A stretch of DNA of 28,160 bases. Source: a virus. Both the position numbers and the translations under genes were made by a program. The number at the start of each line of letters is the position of its first letter. Position 1 is the first letter of the stretch. Shown in pieces: positions 987-22,096 of the stretch. Under the pieces are notes generated by a model. The model saw nothing but the letters and a program-made list of their open reading frames with translations, searched no databases and was not told where the DNA came from. Location: positions 1 to 28,160 of IMG/VR virus record IMGVR_UViG_3300018080_000492. One strand, 5' to 3'.

Positions 987-1216
987 AAAAATTAGCATAT
1001 AAACTAGGACAACTCTTGGCCATAAAGCAGGCCGAAAAGTTACCCGAGATTAATGAGGGTGATGAACTGCTAGGTGGTAGATTTAAAAACATGAAAATGA
1101 CTGCTAAGGGATTGAAAAAAGATAAACACAATCAACCTGTGGTTGAGACAAATAAAGGTGATAGGAAAGTTTTTAATTTTAGAATGAAGAAATTGATGGA
1201 TGAGAAAAAAGACTAA
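983..1216 (+). CDS. Small basic protein of unknown function
   Basis: A 77-residue, lysine-rich protein (ends KKLMDEKKD) with no membrane segment or cysteine motif. It starts at an ATG overlapping the preceding stop by four bases (ATGA), which supports it as a real coupled gene. The central segment NEGDELLGGRFKNMKM followed by a short beta-rich tail has the look of a small conserved phage protein, but I do not recognise a family. Its stop codon TAA shares the tetranucleotide CTAA with the stop of the minus-strand protease gene, leaving no room for a terminator between the converging genes. Confidence 0.6.
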   Translation: MKKLAYKLGQLLAIKQAEKLPEINEGDELLGGRFKNMKMTAKGLKKDKHNQPVVETNKGDRKVFNFRMKKLMDEKKD

Positions 1217-2442
1217 AGAAGAGATTTATAAGCGTCTAAAGTTCCGCCAGTAACTGATATTTCCTCTAAGACATCTAGTTTTTGAACACCCTTCATAAGA
1301 CGTTCTTTGACCTCAGAGTAGCTACTACCAGGATATTTACTAAGAATCAGAGCGGCGGCACCACTAACGTAGGGCGTTGCCATTGAAGTTCCTGATAGCT
1401 CCTTGTAGTTATTACCAATCACTGAACTGTAGATGTCTAAACCGGGAGCAAATAGATCTACGGTTTCTTTACCATAATTACTAAAGTAAGCTTTTCCGCC
1501 CTCAGGATTAAGAGCACCTACGGCCACAACATTCTCTACATCGTAAGTAGCAGGGTAAGTAGGTCTTTCATCGTTATCCCCGTAACTGTTACCAGCGGCC
1601 GCGATAAAGATAACGCCTTTACTTTCAGCGTACTTAACAGCATCGCCAAGAGCTTCATTATACATGGTAGTTCCCCAACTATTGGATAGAACTTTAGCAC
1701 CATTATTTACGGCATATTCTATACCTTGGATTCCGCCTTCCAGCGTTCCTCCTCCCCAACGAGTTAAGAACTTTATGGCCATAACTTTAACATTAGGAGC
1801 AATTCCGTATAGCTTAGGATGATTAGCAGCTATAATTCCTGCGCAGTGAGTACCGTGCATATTGTCATCTAATGGATCTGAGTCTGAGTTAGCGAAATCG
1901 TAGCCATATATGTCATCTACATACCCATTTTCGTCGTCATCGATTTCGTTTCCTGGGATCTCACCTTTATTGACCCACATATTATTTTTAAGAGCTTCGT
2001 GGTTGTAATCGATTCCGGTATCTATAACGGCGACCACTACATCGGCGGCACCTTTAGTTATGGCCCAAGCTTTTTCTGCTTGGACACCGTAATTTGAAGT
2101 TAGGGCCCATTGTTGTGATGGAATAGTTGTCATTGCTTGTACTGTTCCATTTGGCTCAACGTATTTGAATTCTACTTTTGACTTTAGAAGCTTTAGGTCC
2201 TCCTTGTTGACCTTGATAGTGTAAGCGTTAATCCCTTTTAAATGGGACTTAATAATTCGGTTACTATTTCCTTTCTCACTAAAGAAATTAAAGAAATAAT
2301 TACTTTGTTTGTTCTCTGATAACTTCACTATGTACTCATCCTGAGTACTAGGGGTAGGAACTGGAACTACTGCCTTGGCCAGAGAAACGATTCCGAGAAA
2401 AGCAAAATAGAAAGCAAACAAAAGATAAATTCGTATAATCAT
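1213..2442 (-). CDS. Secreted subtilisin-family serine protease (peptidase S8) with propeptide
   Basis: A complete S8 protease of 409 residues. Order: signal peptide (hydrophobic residues 5-20, signal peptidase I-type site AKA at 22-24), inhibitor-like propeptide (about 35-105, I9-like, YIVKL at its start), then the catalytic domain. Triad residues, numbered from the chosen start: Asp141 (AVIDTG), His196 (HGTHCAG), Ser353 (GTSMATP); oxyanion Asn285 (AAGNS). An Asp-rich loop DDDENGYVDD (about 169-178) looks like a calcium site. I chose the ATG at 2442 because GGAGG lies 5 bases upstream; the in-frame ATG at 2454 lies just upstream of that ribosome binding site. The gene runs against the structural operon and has its own promoter (2461-2489), so it behaves as an independently expressed accessory gene beside the lysis genes. 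Substrate unknown. Confidence 0.95.
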   Translation of the reverse strand: MIIRIYLLFAFYFAFLGIVSLAKAVVPVPTPSTQDEYIVKLSENKQSNYFFNFFSEKGNSNRIIKSHLKGINAYTIKVNKEDLKLLKSKVEFKYVEPNGTVQAMTTIPSQQWALTSNYGVQAEKAWAITKGAADVVVAVIDTGIDYNHEALKNNMWVNKGEIPGNEIDDDENGYVDDIYGYDFANSDSDPLDDNMHGTHCAGIIAANHPKLYGIAPNVKVMAIKFLTRWGGGTLEGGIQGIEYAVNNGAKVLSNSWGTTMYNEALGDAVKYAESKGVIFIAAAGNSYGDNDERPTYPATYDVENVVAVGALNPEGGKAYFSNYGKETVDLFAPGLDIYSSVIGNNYKELSGTSMATPYVSGAAALILSKYPGSSYSEVKERLMKGVQKLDVLEEISVTGGTLDAYKSLL

Positions 2443-2460
2443 AAACACCTCCATGCTTTT

Positions 2461-8542: not shown

Positions 8543-9091
8543 ATGGTATCTAAAATTCTAAATAAAGTTAATAATCTGTGGGATGACTTGATTAAACATG
8601 ACTGGCGTCTTGGTTTGATGTGGGGTGCATCAATACCTTTCGTTATATATTTAGTTACTTACAACCTATTAGACGTTTCATTTGAGAGTAAGTTTTTTGT
8701 GGCGGCTCAATTTGGTTTATGGTTTTTTTTAGTTATTTTATATTGGGTTTGGGTTTCAGCTAAGATTAAAAACACTGAGGACAAGTGCCATTGTACGACT
8801 ACTAAAGCAAATCCTACGGTGGAGTACCTCATTAAAGATAGGGAGTATCTTTTACTACTCATAACTAGATCCTTCTATTCTGTAGATAAGCTTATAGTTG
8901 AGAAACGACACCCAAACGCGGACCAAGTGATCCTTGTTTTCCAGTTAAAGAATGGCAATCTTAGATTTTCAGTGCGGGAGAGTATTTTACCAGAATCTCT
9001 TAGGCCTAAGACTACTAAAATAAATAGCAATAAAGTAAATTATAAAAACAATTATCGTTTAATTGATGAATTAATAGAGGTTGCCACATAG
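8543..9091 (+). CDS. Two-TM membrane protein, function unknown
   Basis: I start this 182-residue protein at the ATG at 8543, with GAGG 5 bases upstream; a GTG at 8537 is in frame but falls inside that ribosome binding site. Two membrane segments (about residues 24-44 and 52-75, the second Trp/Phe-rich: FGLWFFLVILYWVWV) are followed by a short Cys-His-Cys motif (CHC) and a soluble strand-rich C-terminal domain of about 90 residues. I know no family for it. The next feature is an IS607-family element, whose insertion may have replaced the last codons: joining the flanks at GG would give the ending IEEALNE instead of IEVAT. Confidence 0.6.
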   Translation: MVSKILNKVNNLWDDLIKHDWRLGLMWGASIPFVIYLVTYNLLDVSFESKFFVAAQFGLWFFLVILYWVWVSAKIKNTEDKCHCTTTKANPTVEYLIKDREYLLLLITRSFYSVDKLIVEKRHPNADQVILVFQLKNGNLRFSVRESILPESLRPKTTKINSNKVNYKNNYRLIDELIEVAT

Positions 9092-9104
9092 TAAATAGTT
9101 TATT

Positions 9105-9133
9105 ACCTAAGTCATATAATTATTGACTAAGGT
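9105..9133. repeat. Imperfect inverted repeat with central TATAAT in the IS left end
   Basis: ACCTAAGTCA (9105-9114) and TGACTAAGGT (9124-9133) form 10-base arms with one mismatch around a centre that contains the palindrome ATAATTAT. TATAAT at 9115-9120 lies exactly in the centre, 20 bases before the tnpA start. This could be a TnpA binding site that overlaps the tnpA promoter, allowing autoregulation and end recognition at one place. Confidence 0.45.
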
Positions 9134-9139
9134 TAACAA

Positions 9140-9712
9140 ATGAGATTATTAAAGACTAAGCTAGCATCGGAAGTATTAGGTTTACATCCGAACACACTGA
9201 GAAGATATGGAAATGAAGGGCAAATTAAGACAATTAGGACAGAATCAGGACAAAGATTGTTCGACGTCGACTCATATTTGGGAAAACAAAAAGATTCAGA
9301 AATCCTCTGCTATTGTCGAGTCTCTTCCTACAAACAAAAAGATGATCTCGAAAGACAAGTTGCACACATGCAACAACACTTCCCAAAAGCAAAAATCATC
9401 AAAGATATTGGAAGTGGGATCAACTTTAAAAGAAAAGGACTTAACTCCATACTGGAACGATTACTGCAAGGAGATAAGCTCAGGCTTGTGGTTGCCTACA
9501 AGGACAGACTTGCTCGATTTGGATTCGAACTTATCGAGTTCCTGGTCAAGCAAAACGGTGGAGAAGTCGTGGTTCTCAACCAAATTGATCTCTCTCCCAA
9601 CGAAGAGCTCACAAATGACCTTCTCAACATTATCCATGTTTTCTCATGTAGGATGCATGGTCTCAGGAAATACGGTCAACAAATCAAAAAAGATAAGAAT
9701 CTATCCAACTAG
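9140..9712 (+). CDS. tnpA: IS607-family transposase TnpA: MerR-type HTH plus serine recombinase
   Basis: A 190-residue serine recombinase with a reversed domain order typical of IS607. The MerR-like winged helix is at residues 3-45 (SEVLGLHPNTLRRYGNEGQI). The resolvase domain follows: YCRVSSYKQKDDLERQ with the likely nucleophile Ser62, Gly-rich DIGSGINFKRKGL (89-101), and KDRLARFGFE (121-130) with the active-site Arg residues 123 and 126. All key residues are present, so it should be able to excise and integrate the element. Codon use changes sharply after about codon 38: CTC, ATC, TTC, AAC and TAC dominate, whereas neighbours and tnpB prefer TTA, ATT, TTT, AAT and TAT. This suggests a separate recent origin for the catalytic part. 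Confidence 0.93.
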   Translation: MRLLKTKLASEVLGLHPNTLRRYGNEGQIKTIRTESGQRLFDVDSYLGKQKDSEILCYCRVSSYKQKDDLERQVAHMQQHFPKAKIIKDIGSGINFKRKGLNSILERLLQGDKLRLVVAYKDRLARFGFELIEFLVKQNGGEVVVLNQIDLSPNEELTNDLLNIIHVFSCRMHGLRKYGQQIKKDKNLSN

Positions 9713-10793
9713 TTTCCAAAAAGAACTTTTGAAAGAGTGTTTAGGTGTTTATCGTTTTGTTTACAACAGAACGATAGATTATCTCAAACAAGAAGGAACT
9801 AAAGCAAATTGGAAGGGTATTAAGACAGAAACCTTACATGGTCTTCCAGAATTTTGTAAGGATATTCCTTATCAGATTAAATCTATCGCTATTCGGGATG
9901 CTTGTATTTCTGTAAGAGAAGCAAAGAAGAAATGTCTTACGAATGGTATATTTAATGAAGTTAAGTTTAAAAGTAGGAAAAACCCTAAACAGTCTTTTTA
10001 TGTTCCAAAAAGTGCTGTGACAGGCAATGGTTTCTATAAAACTATTTTTGGGGAAATGCTATATAAAGAACAATTACCTGAAAATATTAAAGATTGCCGG
10101 CTATCCTTCTATTTGGATAAATGGTATTTGTGCGTACCCTTTGAAAGTAAACTAAACATAACCGAGAGCCAAGGTCGTTTAGTTTCTCTTGATCCAGGGG
10201 TACGCACTTTTCAAACTTTTTTCAGTCAAGATTCTTGTGGAAAATTAGGCACAGGGGACTTTAGTAGAATTCAAAGACTATGCTGTTATTTAGATAAACT
10301 AATATCTAAAAGGGAATTAGCTCGAGCAAAAAGAAAGAATTCTATAAAGAAGGCCATAAATCGTCTTAGATTTAAAATTAGAAACTTAGTGGATGAATTA
10401 CATCACAAAATAGCAAACTTTTTAGTTACTAATTTTGATGTGATTCTTTTACCAACCTTTGAATCTAAAGACATGTCTATGAAAGCTACGAGAAAGATAA
10501 GAAAGAAGAGTGTAAGATCACTTTTAACGTGGAGTCATTATAGGTTCAAACAATTCTTAAAGTCCAAAGCGTATGAATATGGAAAAGTAGTCCTTGATGT
10601 TAATGAGGCCTATACTTCTAAGACAGTATCGTGGACTGGCGAAATCATAGAGAATCTAGGTGGGAGAAAGTGGATAAAAAGTCCTCTTACAGGAAAAGTT
10701 ATGGATCGAGATTACAATGGTGCACGTGGGATTTTCTTACGTGCTTTGGTAGATTCACCCACTCTTAGGAGTGCTATTATTAATGTTAGTTAA
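9657..10793 (+). CDS. tnpB: TnpB-family RNA-guided nuclease with intact RuvC triad but no zinc-finger cysteines
   Basis: I start this 378-residue TnpB at the ATG at 9657, just before the conserved beginning KKIRIYPTSFQKELL; the frame is open further upstream through tnpA but that part is not TnpB-like. The N-terminal recognition region (10-170) is followed by RuvC. Asp179 (LDPGVR), Glu269 (LPTFES) and Asp352 (DRDYNGAR) match the catalytic residues, with spacing close to ISDra2 TnpB. Between Glu269 and Asp352 the usual Cys4 zinc finger is degenerate: TSKTVSWTGEI and KSPLTGKV stand where TSKTCxxCG and CPxCG are expected, so all four cysteines are replaced (V, T, S, T). TSKT, ENLGG and DRDxNGAR remain. 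TnpB normally nicks and cuts DNA guided by an omega RNA made from the element's 3' end. Confidence 0.92.
   Translation: MVSGNTVNKSKKIRIYPTSFQKELLKECLGVYRFVYNRTIDYLKQEGTKANWKGIKTETLHGLPEFCKDIPYQIKSIAIRDACISVREAKKKCLTNGIFNEVKFKSRKNPKQSFYVPKSAVTGNGFYKTIFGEMLYKEQLPENIKDCRLSFYLDKWYLCVPFESKLNITESQGRLVSLDPGVRTFQTFFSQDSCGKLGTGDFSRIQRLCCYLDKLISKRELARAKRKNSIKKAINRLRFKIRNLVDELHHKIANFLVTNFDVILLPTFESKDMSMKATRKIRKKSVRSLLTWSHYRFKQFLKSKAYEYGKVVLDVNEAYTSKTVSWTGEIIENLGGRKWIKSPLTGKVMDRDYNGARGIFLRALVDSPTLRSAIINVS
10760..10773 (+). ncRNA. Hairpin in the 3' end of tnpB, possible part of the omega RNA scaffold
   Basis: CACTC-TTAG-GAGTG forms a 5-bp stem with a 4-base loop in the last codons of tnpB. Omega RNAs of TnpB systems derive from the 3' end of the element and overlap the tnpB reading frame, ending with a guide copied from the DNA flanking the right end. 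Only this small hairpin can be seen; the RNA's full extent and its existence are inferred from the family. Confidence 0.25.
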
Positions 10794-10816
10794 TAAAAAA
10801 GGATCGGAGGCTCTTA

Positions 10817-11479
10817 ATGAGTGATAACTATTTGTATTTAGATACTGAGACTACAGGATTGAACCCTGTTATAAATGATATAATTGAGCTAGGGGCAATT
10901 ATAGAAGTTAAGGGTGAGAGGAAAGAAGAATTTAAGGCGGTATGTCGTCCTTTTAATATGAAGTCCATTTCTCGTAAGGCATTAGAAACTAATCAACATA
11001 CGATGGACATGATTGAGACTTATCCTGATCCTAAAGAAGTGTTTAAAAAATTCATACTATTTTTAGGTAAATATTTTAATGGAAAAGACTTCAATAATCG
11101 TTATGTTTTGGTGGGACAAAATGTTGATTTTGATAAGCGATTTTTGAAAGCTTTTTTTCATAAGTGTGGTTACGATGAATATGCGTTTAACAAGGTCATT
11201 CATTATCAATCAATTGACCTTTTAGGGTTGAGTTTTTTACTAAGGGCCAAGGGACTTATTCCTAATGGTAAATTAAAATTAGAGGTTATGACTAAGCTTT
11301 ACGGGATAAAGCAGGCCAAAGAGCATGATGCTTTGGAAGATATTCGATCTACTTATGATATCTTGAAGAAGATAGAAAAATTATTTATTCGGAATCCAGA
11401 GGAGATTGATCTGTCTCTTTTGGATGATCAAACTCCTTTATATGCCCACCTTCTTAATATTTCTCAATCTAAATCATAA
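10817..11479 (+). CDS. DnaQ-like 3'-5' exonuclease (DEDDh)
   Basis: A 220-residue exonuclease of the RNase T/DnaQ superfamily. Exo I: Asp9 and Glu11 in LDTETTGL; Exo II: Asp106 in NVDFDKRF; Exo III: His170 and Asp175 in EHDALEDIRSTYDIL. All four acidic residues and the general-base histidine are present, so it should hydrolyse nucleotides from 3' ends with two metal ions. No polymerase domain is attached. GGAGG lies 6 bases before the ATG, and this ribosome binding site lies at the presumed right end of the IS607-family element, so expression may depend on transcription from tnpB. Possible roles are proofreading in trans, DNA or RNA turnover, or damage repair; position does not decide. Confidence 0.9.
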   Translation: MSDNYLYLDTETTGLNPVINDIIELGAIIEVKGERKEEFKAVCRPFNMKSISRKALETNQHTMDMIETYPDPKEVFKKFILFLGKYFNGKDFNNRYVLVGQNVDFDKRFLKAFFHKCGYDEYAFNKVIHYQSIDLLGLSFLLRAKGLIPNGKLKLEVMTKLYGIKQAKEHDALEDIRSTYDILKKIEKLFIRNPEEIDLSLLDDQTPLYAHLLNISQSKS

Positions 11480-21109: not shown

Positions 21110-21399
21110 ATAATATAGCAAAAATTTCAAAGACAATAATATTTCTCGATAAGATAGCAGCTAATGTAGATGATGCTATAAAGACGACCCGTAAGATGCA
21201 AAAGACCTATAAAAGTATAGGGCCTGCATCTAATACTAAGATCCCGGAGATAAAAGCTTTGGGTTCTGGTAAATCGTCTTCTGGAGGAGGGTCGGGTTCT
21301 AGTTCTTCTAGTTCATCTTCATCTCCTGGTGGAGATCCTTATTATCCAGTGGAAAATCCAGTTGATCGGCTAACTCCTGGGGGAATAAATGCCTACTAG
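21106..21399 (+). CDS. Small protein with Ser/Gly linker, upstream of the sigma gene
   Basis: A 97-residue protein: a helical Lys/Ile-rich N-terminus (1-45), then a low-complexity Ser/Gly run (residues 53-76, including nine consecutive Ser) and a Pro/Tyr tail. No good ribosome binding site stands at a normal distance from the ATG, which agrees with leaderless translation from the promoter just upstream. The last 11 bases overlap the sigma gene start. The linker suggests a tethered or flexible protein. Possible partner of the sigma factor (for example an anti-sigma or co-activator), but this is from gene order only. Confidence 0.55.
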   Translation: MDNIAKISKTIIFLDKIAANVDDAIKTTRKMQKTYKSIGPASNTKIPEIKALGSGKSSSGGGSGSSSSSSSSSPGGDPYYPVENPVDRLTPGGINAY

Positions 21400-22096
21400 A
21401 CAAGACGAAGATATCCGATTATGGAAGCAGTGGAAGAAAACTAAGTCTCCCCAAGATGCGTCTGCGTTAGTTAATCAGATGATGCCATTAGTTCGAAATG
21501 ATATTAGTAGGTACCATAACAATATGAACCCGGTTGTTGTTGAGGCACATGCGAAAGATTTAATTTTGCAAGCAGCAGAGAATTATGATCCAAATAAAGG
21601 TGTGGCATTTTCTACATTTGTTAAATCTTACATGGTTAAAATGAATCAACGGAGTGACGGGTGGGTTACTCCAATGAAGATACCGGATCATAGAAGGAAT
21701 AAGTACAATACTTTTAAAAATTCATATGAGGATTTAGCAGAAAAAAATAATAGAGAGCCTACTATAGAAGAGTTGGCAGATGATTTGAGGTGGAGTCAAG
21801 CAGAGGTAAAAAGATTCTTAAGTGAGATTAGAGAAGGTTATTCTGAGGATAGACCTTTTATGTCTACTTATATTCCTAATCAATCGGCAGAAGAGGAGAT
21901 CATTGATTATATTTATCATGATCTTTCTCCTAGAGAGAAGTTGCTTCTGGAATACACTACGGGTTATGGTGGTAAGCCAAAACTTAGTAATAAAGAAATA
22001 ATGAAAAGAATGAATCTGAATCAAAATCAGCTTTCATATGAGAGAAAGAAATTAGCAGATAAAATTGAAAAGGTTATGTTAAGTGGGCATAGGTAA
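21389..22096 (+). CDS. Phage RNA polymerase sigma factor, sigma-70 family (group 3-like)
   Basis: A 235-residue sigma factor that would direct host RNA polymerase to phage promoters. Region 2 (about 22-85): SALVNQMMPLVRNDISRY, then AAENYDPNKGVAFSTFVKSYM, the core-binding and -10 signature. Region 3 (about 96-150): NREPTIEELADDLRWSQAEVKR. Region 4 (about 178-230): LSPREKLLLEYTTGYGG, then LSNKEIMKRMNLNQNQLSYERKK, a helix-turn-helix for -35 recognition. There is no region 1.1, and the size matches FliA/sporulation-type factors. It overlaps the Ser-rich gene by 11 bases and the next gene by 14 bases. Its position inside the structural block, behind a host-type promoter, suggests a middle-expressed factor that then drives late genes. 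Confidence 0.88.
   Translation: MPTRQDEDIRLWKQWKKTKSPQDASALVNQMMPLVRNDISRYHNNMNPVVVEAHAKDLILQAAENYDPNKGVAFSTFVKSYMVKMNQRSDGWVTPMKIPDHRRNKYNTFKNSYEDLAEKNNREPTIEELADDLRWSQAEVKRFLSEIREGYSEDRPFMSTYIPNQSAEEEIIDYIYHDLSPREKLLLEYTTGYGGKPKLSNKEIMKRMNLNQNQLSYERKKLADKIEKVMLSGHR

What the first reader, a model, noticed from the sequence alone, without database searches (positions are those of the whole stretch)
9657..10793. TnpB with complete RuvC triad but all four zinc-finger cysteines lost
The D179/E269/D352 catalytic set is present with usual spacing, and neighbouring signatures (TSKT, ENLGG, DRDYNGAR) are kept, yet the positions that bind zinc in TnpB are V, T, S and T. This is a neat substitution at each cysteine, not a deletion or a ruined gene. 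Known TnpB variants that lost function usually lose RuvC residues (the repressor-like TldR group), the reverse of what is seen here. It may mark a zinc-independent branch of RNA-guided nucleases carried by phages.
Basis: partly seen in the sequence, partly recalled or inferred. Interest (0 to 1): 0.68.

Follow-up and report, generated by a model that had tools for sequence, protein, structure and literature searches.

The report
Zinc-free RNA-guided nuclease in phage transposon
This phage carries a jumping gene whose RNA-guided DNA-cutting enzyme has lost all four cysteines of its usual zinc finger, and about 90 related genes found here, mostly in cyanobacteria, have lost them too while still looking intact and under selection, so the zinc atom seems to be dispensable in a whole overlooked branch of this enzyme family.

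Summary
Confirmed and extended, with one correction. The ORF at 9657-10793 is the TnpB of a complete IS607-type element (9079-10807, GG at each end; intact serine-recombinase TnpA) inserted between two phage genes. All four zinc cysteines are absent (V324, T327, S342, T345). This is not a private loss: 93 of 97 aligned relatives (cyanobacteria, Poribacteria, Chloroflexota, Parabeggiatoa, phages) lack the finger and most share TSKT-V-S-W-T-G with a conserved Trp; no substitute Cys/His site appears. DPG plus E317 is the published 'pro-Fanzor' signature (IS607 TnpBs ancestral to eukaryotic Fanzors); that study's search pattern required CxxC..CxxC, so these were excluded. A guide-RNA pseudoknot, one arm inside tnpB, is perfectly paired in 86 of 90 loci with nine compensated combinations; dN/dS is 0.05-0.14 in 15 of 16 pairs; multicopy elements and empty sites show mobility; AlphaFold gives the same lid fold with and without cysteines. 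Best reading: an active RNA-guided nuclease whose lid folds without zinc. Cleavage and zinc content are untested. New variant of a known kind.

The parts
9079..10807 (+). Whole IS607-type element (1729 bp). GG dinucleotide at each end; left end GGTTGCCACATAG, right end AAAAAAGGATCGG.
   Evidence: Right end matches the conserved right end of ~90 relatives; left end resembles the Anabaenopsis element's GGTTAGCCAATAG. Joining the flanks gives an upstream ORF ending ELIEEALNE* that overlaps the ATG of the next gene. Empty sites in relatives confirm GG boundaries for the Anabaenopsis copies.
9140..9712 (+). tnpA, IS607 serine recombinase (MerR-type HTH plus resolvase domain), 190 aa
   Evidence: NF033518 transpos_IS607 E 6.5e-54, above cut-off; Pfam Resolvase E 4e-17, MerR E 1.5e-7
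9657..10793 (+). tnpB without zinc-finger cysteines, 378 aa, overlapping tnpA
   Evidence: NF040570 guided_TnpB 135.7 bits (cut-off 100); Pfam PF07282 TNB E 1.3e-15; Foldseek best PDB match mimivirus Fanzor2 9b0l E 2.1e-20
10191..10193 (+). catalytic D179 (DPG motif, RuvC-I)
   Evidence: D and G in 97 of 97, P in 95 of 97
10452..10454 (+). P266: position of the canonical RuvC-II Glu, here an invariant Pro
   Evidence: P in 97 of 97; canonical phage TnpBs have E here
10605..10607 (+). E317, alternative RuvC-II Glu (Ealt)
   Evidence: E in 96 of 97, six residues before the first lost cysteine
10626..10691 (+). former zinc finger in the TNB lid: V324, T327, S342, T345 replace the cysteines; W326 conserved
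   Evidence: W326 in 91 of 97; no row without C4 has more than one Cys between E317 and D352. AF2 mean pLDDT 84-92 over 321-350
10710..10712 (+). catalytic D352 (RuvC-III)
   Evidence: D in 97 of 97
10722..10744 (+). guide-RNA (omegaRNA/reRNA) stem 1, inside tnpB
   Evidence: 87% of cells paired, 5 of 6 pairs with changes on both sides
10752..10756 (+). guide-RNA pseudoknot arm A (GAUUC), codons D366-S367
   Evidence: pairs with 10801-10805; 100% of cells paired in 32 sequences; 86 of 90 loci fully paired
10760..10773 (+). guide-RNA hairpin 2 (CACUC UUAG GAGUG), the stretch in which TnpB C-termini vary
   Evidence: single-sequence fold; hairpin of other sequence at the same place in relatives
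10801..10805 (+). guide-RNA pseudoknot arm B (GGAUC), just before the right-end GG
10808..10827 (+). predicted guide (AGGCTCTTAATGAGTGATAA): the ribosome-binding site and start of the DnaQ-like exonuclease gene; would match the unoccupied site
   Evidence: inference from element boundary and IS607 reRNA architecture (PMC10711439)

Best explanation
A complete IS607-type insertion sequence in a phage genome. [quoted passage not shown] It works like other TnpBs: it binds the RNA of the element's right end, whose scaffold overlaps the 3' end of tnpB, uses the flanking ~16-20 nt as guide, and cuts the unoccupied site with a RuvC site made of D179, E317 and D352. This would help the element persist after TnpA excision and spread to uninserted co-infecting phages. 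Shown here: cysteine loss across a broad lineage, conserved triad, guide-RNA covariation, purifying selection, mobility. Inferred: nuclease activity, absence of zinc, the lid's role.
For: 93 of 97 aligned relatives lack C4 while D179 (97/97), E317 (96/97) and D352 (97/97) are kept. Distribution over several bacterial phyla and several phage groups. Pseudoknot 100% paired in 32 sequences with 3 of 5 pairs compensated; whole-structure covariation 0.436 against shuffled mean 0.099, 0 of 500, and collapse when slid by one column; 86 of 90 loci fully paired in nine distinct fully paired combinations, 2 of 20,000 shuffles as good. dN/dS 0.05-0.14 in 15 of 16 Zn-less pairs (the sixteenth, L016/L017, too similar to judge). 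About ten 1.7-kb copies, mostly ~97% identical, in one Anabaenopsis genome; phage elements 99.2% identical in unrelated flanks (L016/L017); empty sites. TnpA nearly complete beside 83 of 98 loci. AF2 secondary structure of the lid is the same, element for element, in the Zn-less window protein and a C4 relative.
Against: No cleavage or metal data. In ISDra2 TnpB most zinc-finger mutations are depleted in a deep mutational scan (PMC11844463), so loss needs compensation that is only suggested (Trp). The window's own empty site and close phage relatives were not found. Sampling was seeded with Zn-less proteins, so 93/97 is not a population frequency. Whether the finger was lost once or several times is unresolved.
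Confidence: 0.8

Rival explanations
1. The protein lost nuclease activity and acts only as an RNA-guided DNA binder or repressor, like TldR.
For: The canonical RuvC-II Glu is gone (P266), and the finger, important in ISDra2 TnpB, is gone.
Against: The alternative Glu E317 is conserved in 96 of 97 with D179 and D352, as in the DPG+Ealt pro-Fanzor/Fanzor group (PMC10711439). The gene sits in intact, recently mobile elements with TnpA.
Confidence: 0.08
2. Decaying TnpB: the cysteines were lost because the gene is drifting.
For: TnpB is dispensable for transposition in IS607 elements (PMC6188088 abstract); some Moorena copies carry stops (L049, L064).
Against: dN/dS about 0.1 over the whole protein; low dN in the lid in most pairs; a new conserved Trp; multi-phylum distribution; compensatory changes in the guide RNA.
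Confidence: 0.04
3. Zinc is still bound, by other residues of this protein or by a partner, so the enzyme is not zinc-free.
For: Not excluded by sequence alone; conserved C83, C209, H249 and H294 exist.
Against: Those residues are mostly shared with C4 members and are not in the lid; no Cys/His site is specific to Zn-less proteins near the lid.
Confidence: 0.08

Closest known systems
pro-Fanzors: cyanobacterial IS607 TnpBs with DPG and Ealt (Yoon et al. 2023, PMC10711439)
   Same: DPG motif, alternative Glu six residues before the finger position, IS607 TnpA partner, right-end RNA with pseudoknot, mainly cyanobacterial
   Different: All four zinc cysteines absent and a Trp in the former CxxC; the published pattern required CxxC..CxxC, so such proteins could not be retrieved; occurs also in phages and outside cyanobacteria
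Fanzor2 of mimivirus (TnpB-like L79, PDB 9b0l)
   Same: Best solved-structure match by sequence (E 1.2e-25) and by fold (E 2.1e-20)
   Different: Keeps the C4 zinc finger (alignment); virus of a eukaryote; longer protein with N-terminal extension
ISDra2 TnpB (PDB 8h1j)
   Same: Overall fold (TM 0.73); TNB lid between RuvC-II and RuvC-III
   Different: Canonical Glu E278, C4 finger C331/C334/C351/C354 binding zinc (PMC10097598); IS200/IS605 element
Vibrio phage F100/F88 IS607-type elements (annotated 'transposase')
   Same: Also without the four cysteines, same right end and pseudoknot
   Different: About 40% identical; in a different phage group; TSKTQTWDG variant of the lid

Membership tests
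IS607-family insertion sequence | TnpA serine recombinase with N-terminal MerR-like HTH | tested here: met
   NF033518 182.3 bits, cut-off 110
IS607-family insertion sequence | Ends at a short dinucleotide core, no terminal inverted repeats or target duplication | tested here: met
   GG at both ends in the window and in Anabaenopsis copies; empty sites in relatives G298, G311, G074. The window's own empty site was not found.
TnpB (OMEGA) RNA-guided nuclease | RuvC D-E-D triad | tested here: met
   D179, E317 (alternative position), D352 conserved
TnpB (OMEGA) RNA-guided nuclease | C4 zinc finger in the TNB lid (part of the published TnpB/Fanzor motif, PMC3627910) | tested here: not met
   V, T, S, T at the four positions; absent in 93 of 97 relatives
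TnpB (OMEGA) RNA-guided nuclease | Right-end guide RNA overlapping the 3' end of tnpB | tested here: met
   Covarying stem and pseudoknot
TnpB (OMEGA) RNA-guided nuclease | RNA-guided DNA cleavage | not testable with these tools
   needs biochemistry
pro-Fanzor (DPG + Ealt TnpB) | DPG in RuvC-I and Glu six residues before the finger | tested here: met
   SLDPGVRTF; E317-AYTSKT-V324
pro-Fanzor (DPG + Ealt TnpB) | CxxC-x(12,18)-CxxC as in the published search pattern | tested here: not met
   pattern quoted; cysteines absent
TldR (nuclease-dead TnpB-like repressor) | Loss of RuvC catalytic residues | tested here: not met
   Triad conserved when the alternative Glu is used

The most novel reading that the evidence does not exclude
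A widespread, active lineage of Fanzor-like RNA-guided nucleases has replaced the zinc finger of its lid by a metal-free, tryptophan-containing fold; it has been missed because published searches demanded the cysteines, and it coexists with zinc-containing relatives in the same cyanobacterial genomes.
Probability: 0.7. Interest if true: 0.65.

Novelty: new variant of a known kind. Interest (0 to 1): 0.6.

Why it matters
The C4 zinc finger has been treated as part of the defining motif of TnpB and Fanzor (PMC3627910), and most mutations in it are depleted in ISDra2 TnpB. A natural lineage that does without it makes the finger's role directly testable by swapping lids between close relatives, shows that surveys with a cysteine pattern undercount pro-Fanzors, and offers compact nucleases that may not need zinc. 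It also widens the range of this Fanzor-ancestor group from cyanobacteria (described as exclusive) to phages and other phyla.

Tried and rejected
Single-protein scan of viral contigs found nothing; alignment-based scans worked. Alternative zinc site elsewhere: rejected. Canonical catalytic Glu at E269: rejected by conservation. TldR-like inactivation and decay: rejected on triad conservation and dN/dS. Empty site of the window's element: no phage with it found by exonuclease relatives or by a 22-base joined-site pattern. Rfam has no model for this RNA. Single loss versus several losses: best trees need 3-5 changes but one origin is not rejected (AU p 0.33-0.38), so left open. Strict motif census in 292 cyanobacterial genomes (10 with the Zn-less motif, 7 with the C4 motif) is only a lower bound: the C4 pattern missed known C4 copies in G001. 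Two key survey papers (Sci Adv 2023, PNAS 2023) are not in the library, so prior mention there cannot be excluded.

Full report
What is there. The ORF at 9657-10793 encodes a 378-residue TnpB. It overlaps the 3' end of a 190-aa IS607 TnpA serine recombinase at 9140-9712 (NF033518, 182 bits). The element runs from 9079 to 10807, with GG at both ends. It lies between a small membrane-protein-like ORF (from 8537) and a DnaQ-like exonuclease gene (10817). Joining the two flanks in a script gives an upstream ORF ending ELIEEALNE* whose stop overlaps the ATG of the exonuclease, a natural arrangement that the insertion replaced with the ending VAT*. The window record is a 28,160-base virus contig; tail and baseplate-like genes, an amidase, a sigma-like factor and a subtilase surround the element.

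The cysteines. In the TNB lid the window reads EAYTSKT-V-S-W-T-G...K-S-P-L-T-G-KVMDRDYNG; canonical TnpBs have C at V324, T327, S342 and T345. Relatives had to be searched with an alignment. Viral contigs gave L010-L022 and L102-L110, and genome contigs gave 79 loci, mostly cyanobacterial, with Poribacteria, Latescibacterota, Caldilineaceae, Parabeggiatoa and a Desulfatirhabdium. Of 97 aligned proteins, 93 lack the finger. W326 is present in 91 of 97, and no Zn-less row has more than one cysteine between E317 and D352. Full C4 rows are L099, L106, L107 and the Microcoleus phage L004. Rows keeping only the first cysteine (TSKTCSW: L061, L103, L174, L175) look like intermediates. The Vibrio phage elements, about 40% identical, also lack all four. 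No substitute Cys/His site is specific to the Zn-less proteins.

The active site. The canonical Glu position holds an invariant Pro (P266), and E317 is conserved in 96 of 97. Yoon et al. (PMC10711439) describe exactly this combination, DPG in RuvC-I and a Glu six residues before the finger, as the signature of Fanzors and of 'pro-Fanzors', IS607 TnpBs said to occur exclusively in cyanobacteria. Their search expressions contain CxxC-x(12,18)-CxxC, so cysteine-less members could not be retrieved. The best solved-structure match, by sequence and by fold, is the mimivirus Fanzor2.

Guide RNA. The right end is conserved in nearly all loci. Five bases inside tnpB (GAUUC at 10752-10756, codons D366-S367) pair with five bases before the terminal GG (GGAUC at 10801-10805). 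In 90 loci, 86 pairs of arms are fully complementary (G-U allowed). There are 13 distinct arm combinations, nine of them fully paired; shuffling partners among the distinct combinations reached this in 2 of 20,000 trials. On a 32-sequence alignment the pseudoknot is paired in 100% of cells and the upstream stem in 87%. The covariation score is 0.436 against a shuffled mean of 0.099, and collapses if the partners are slid by one column. A conserved reRNA pseudoknot is known in TnpBs and Fanzor2s (PMC10711439); its presence here says the RNA partner is under selection in the Zn-less lineage. In L012-L017 and L048/L055 the stem is replaced by unrelated palindromes at the same place.

Selection and mobility. 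dN/dS is 0.05-0.14 between Zn-less TnpBs in 15 of 16 pairs; the exception is the 99.2% identical pair L016/L017, with too few changes to judge. One Anabaenopsis chromosome carries about ten copies of a 1.7-kb Zn-less element, mostly ~97% identical, plus a second, C4 family. Relatives have two of the sites unoccupied, joined at GG. Among phages, L016 and L017 share a 99.2% identical element in unrelated flanks. TnpA is nearly complete beside 83 of 98 loci.

Structure. AlphaFold2 models of the window protein (mean pLDDT 85; lid blocks 84-92) and of a C4 relative, L189, show the same order and spacing of strands in the lid. This suggests that the lid keeps its fold without the metal; no coordinates were available to see the packing around W326.

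How many losses. With the lid columns left out, the C4 cyanobacterial pro-Fanzors form a separate, fully supported clade. The Zn-less proteins need 3-5 state changes on the best trees, but one origin is not rejected (AU p 0.33-0.38).

Mechanism. By homology and the evidence above, the protein most likely binds its right-end RNA, takes the flank (from 10808: AGGCTCTTAATGAGTGATAA) as guide, and cuts the unoccupied allele. That would restore the element after excision and let it spread among co-infecting phages. The cleavage step and the absence of zinc are inference. Most zinc-finger mutations are depleted in ISDra2 TnpB (PMC11844463), so the natural loss implies compensation, and the conserved Trp is the candidate.

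Limits. The sampling was seeded with Zn-less proteins, so frequencies are not population frequencies. The motif counts in cyanobacteria are lower bounds. No earlier description of cysteine-less TnpBs was found in the held library, but two survey papers are not held.

Noticed in passing
L049, L064 (Moorena), tnpB lid region: Two copies share the same short insertion with a TGA stop between MD and RDING ('MD*PLVTLRERDING'), apparently a small repeat inserted at the same spot.
   Followed up: no
L012-L017, L021, L048, L055: sequence just before the pseudoknot: The guide-RNA stem overlapping tnpB is replaced by entirely different palindromes, with matching extra residues in the protein C-terminus: the coding sequence seems to be shaped by the RNA hairpin.
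   Followed up: partly
G001:C1:639551-651743 (L144): Three nearly identical Zn-less elements lie a few kb apart in Anabaenopsis with identical flanks (a repeated target sequence).
   Followed up: no
L141 left flank: One Anabaenopsis copy appears to have inserted near the start of another tnpB-like gene (left flank translates to a TnpB-like N-terminus).
   Followed up: no
window 1213-2454 (-): Subtilase (Peptidase S8, E 1.4e-60) encoded on the opposite strand inside the phage contig.
   Followed up: no
window 21389-22096 (+): Sigma-70-like factor (region 3, E 6e-7) among tail/baseplate genes, possibly a phage late-transcription factor.
   Followed up: no
L166 (188-kb viral contig): A phage-borne Zn-less TnpB groups with Oscillatoria copies (L083), pointing to transfer of the element between cyanobacterial hosts and phages.
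   Followed up: partly
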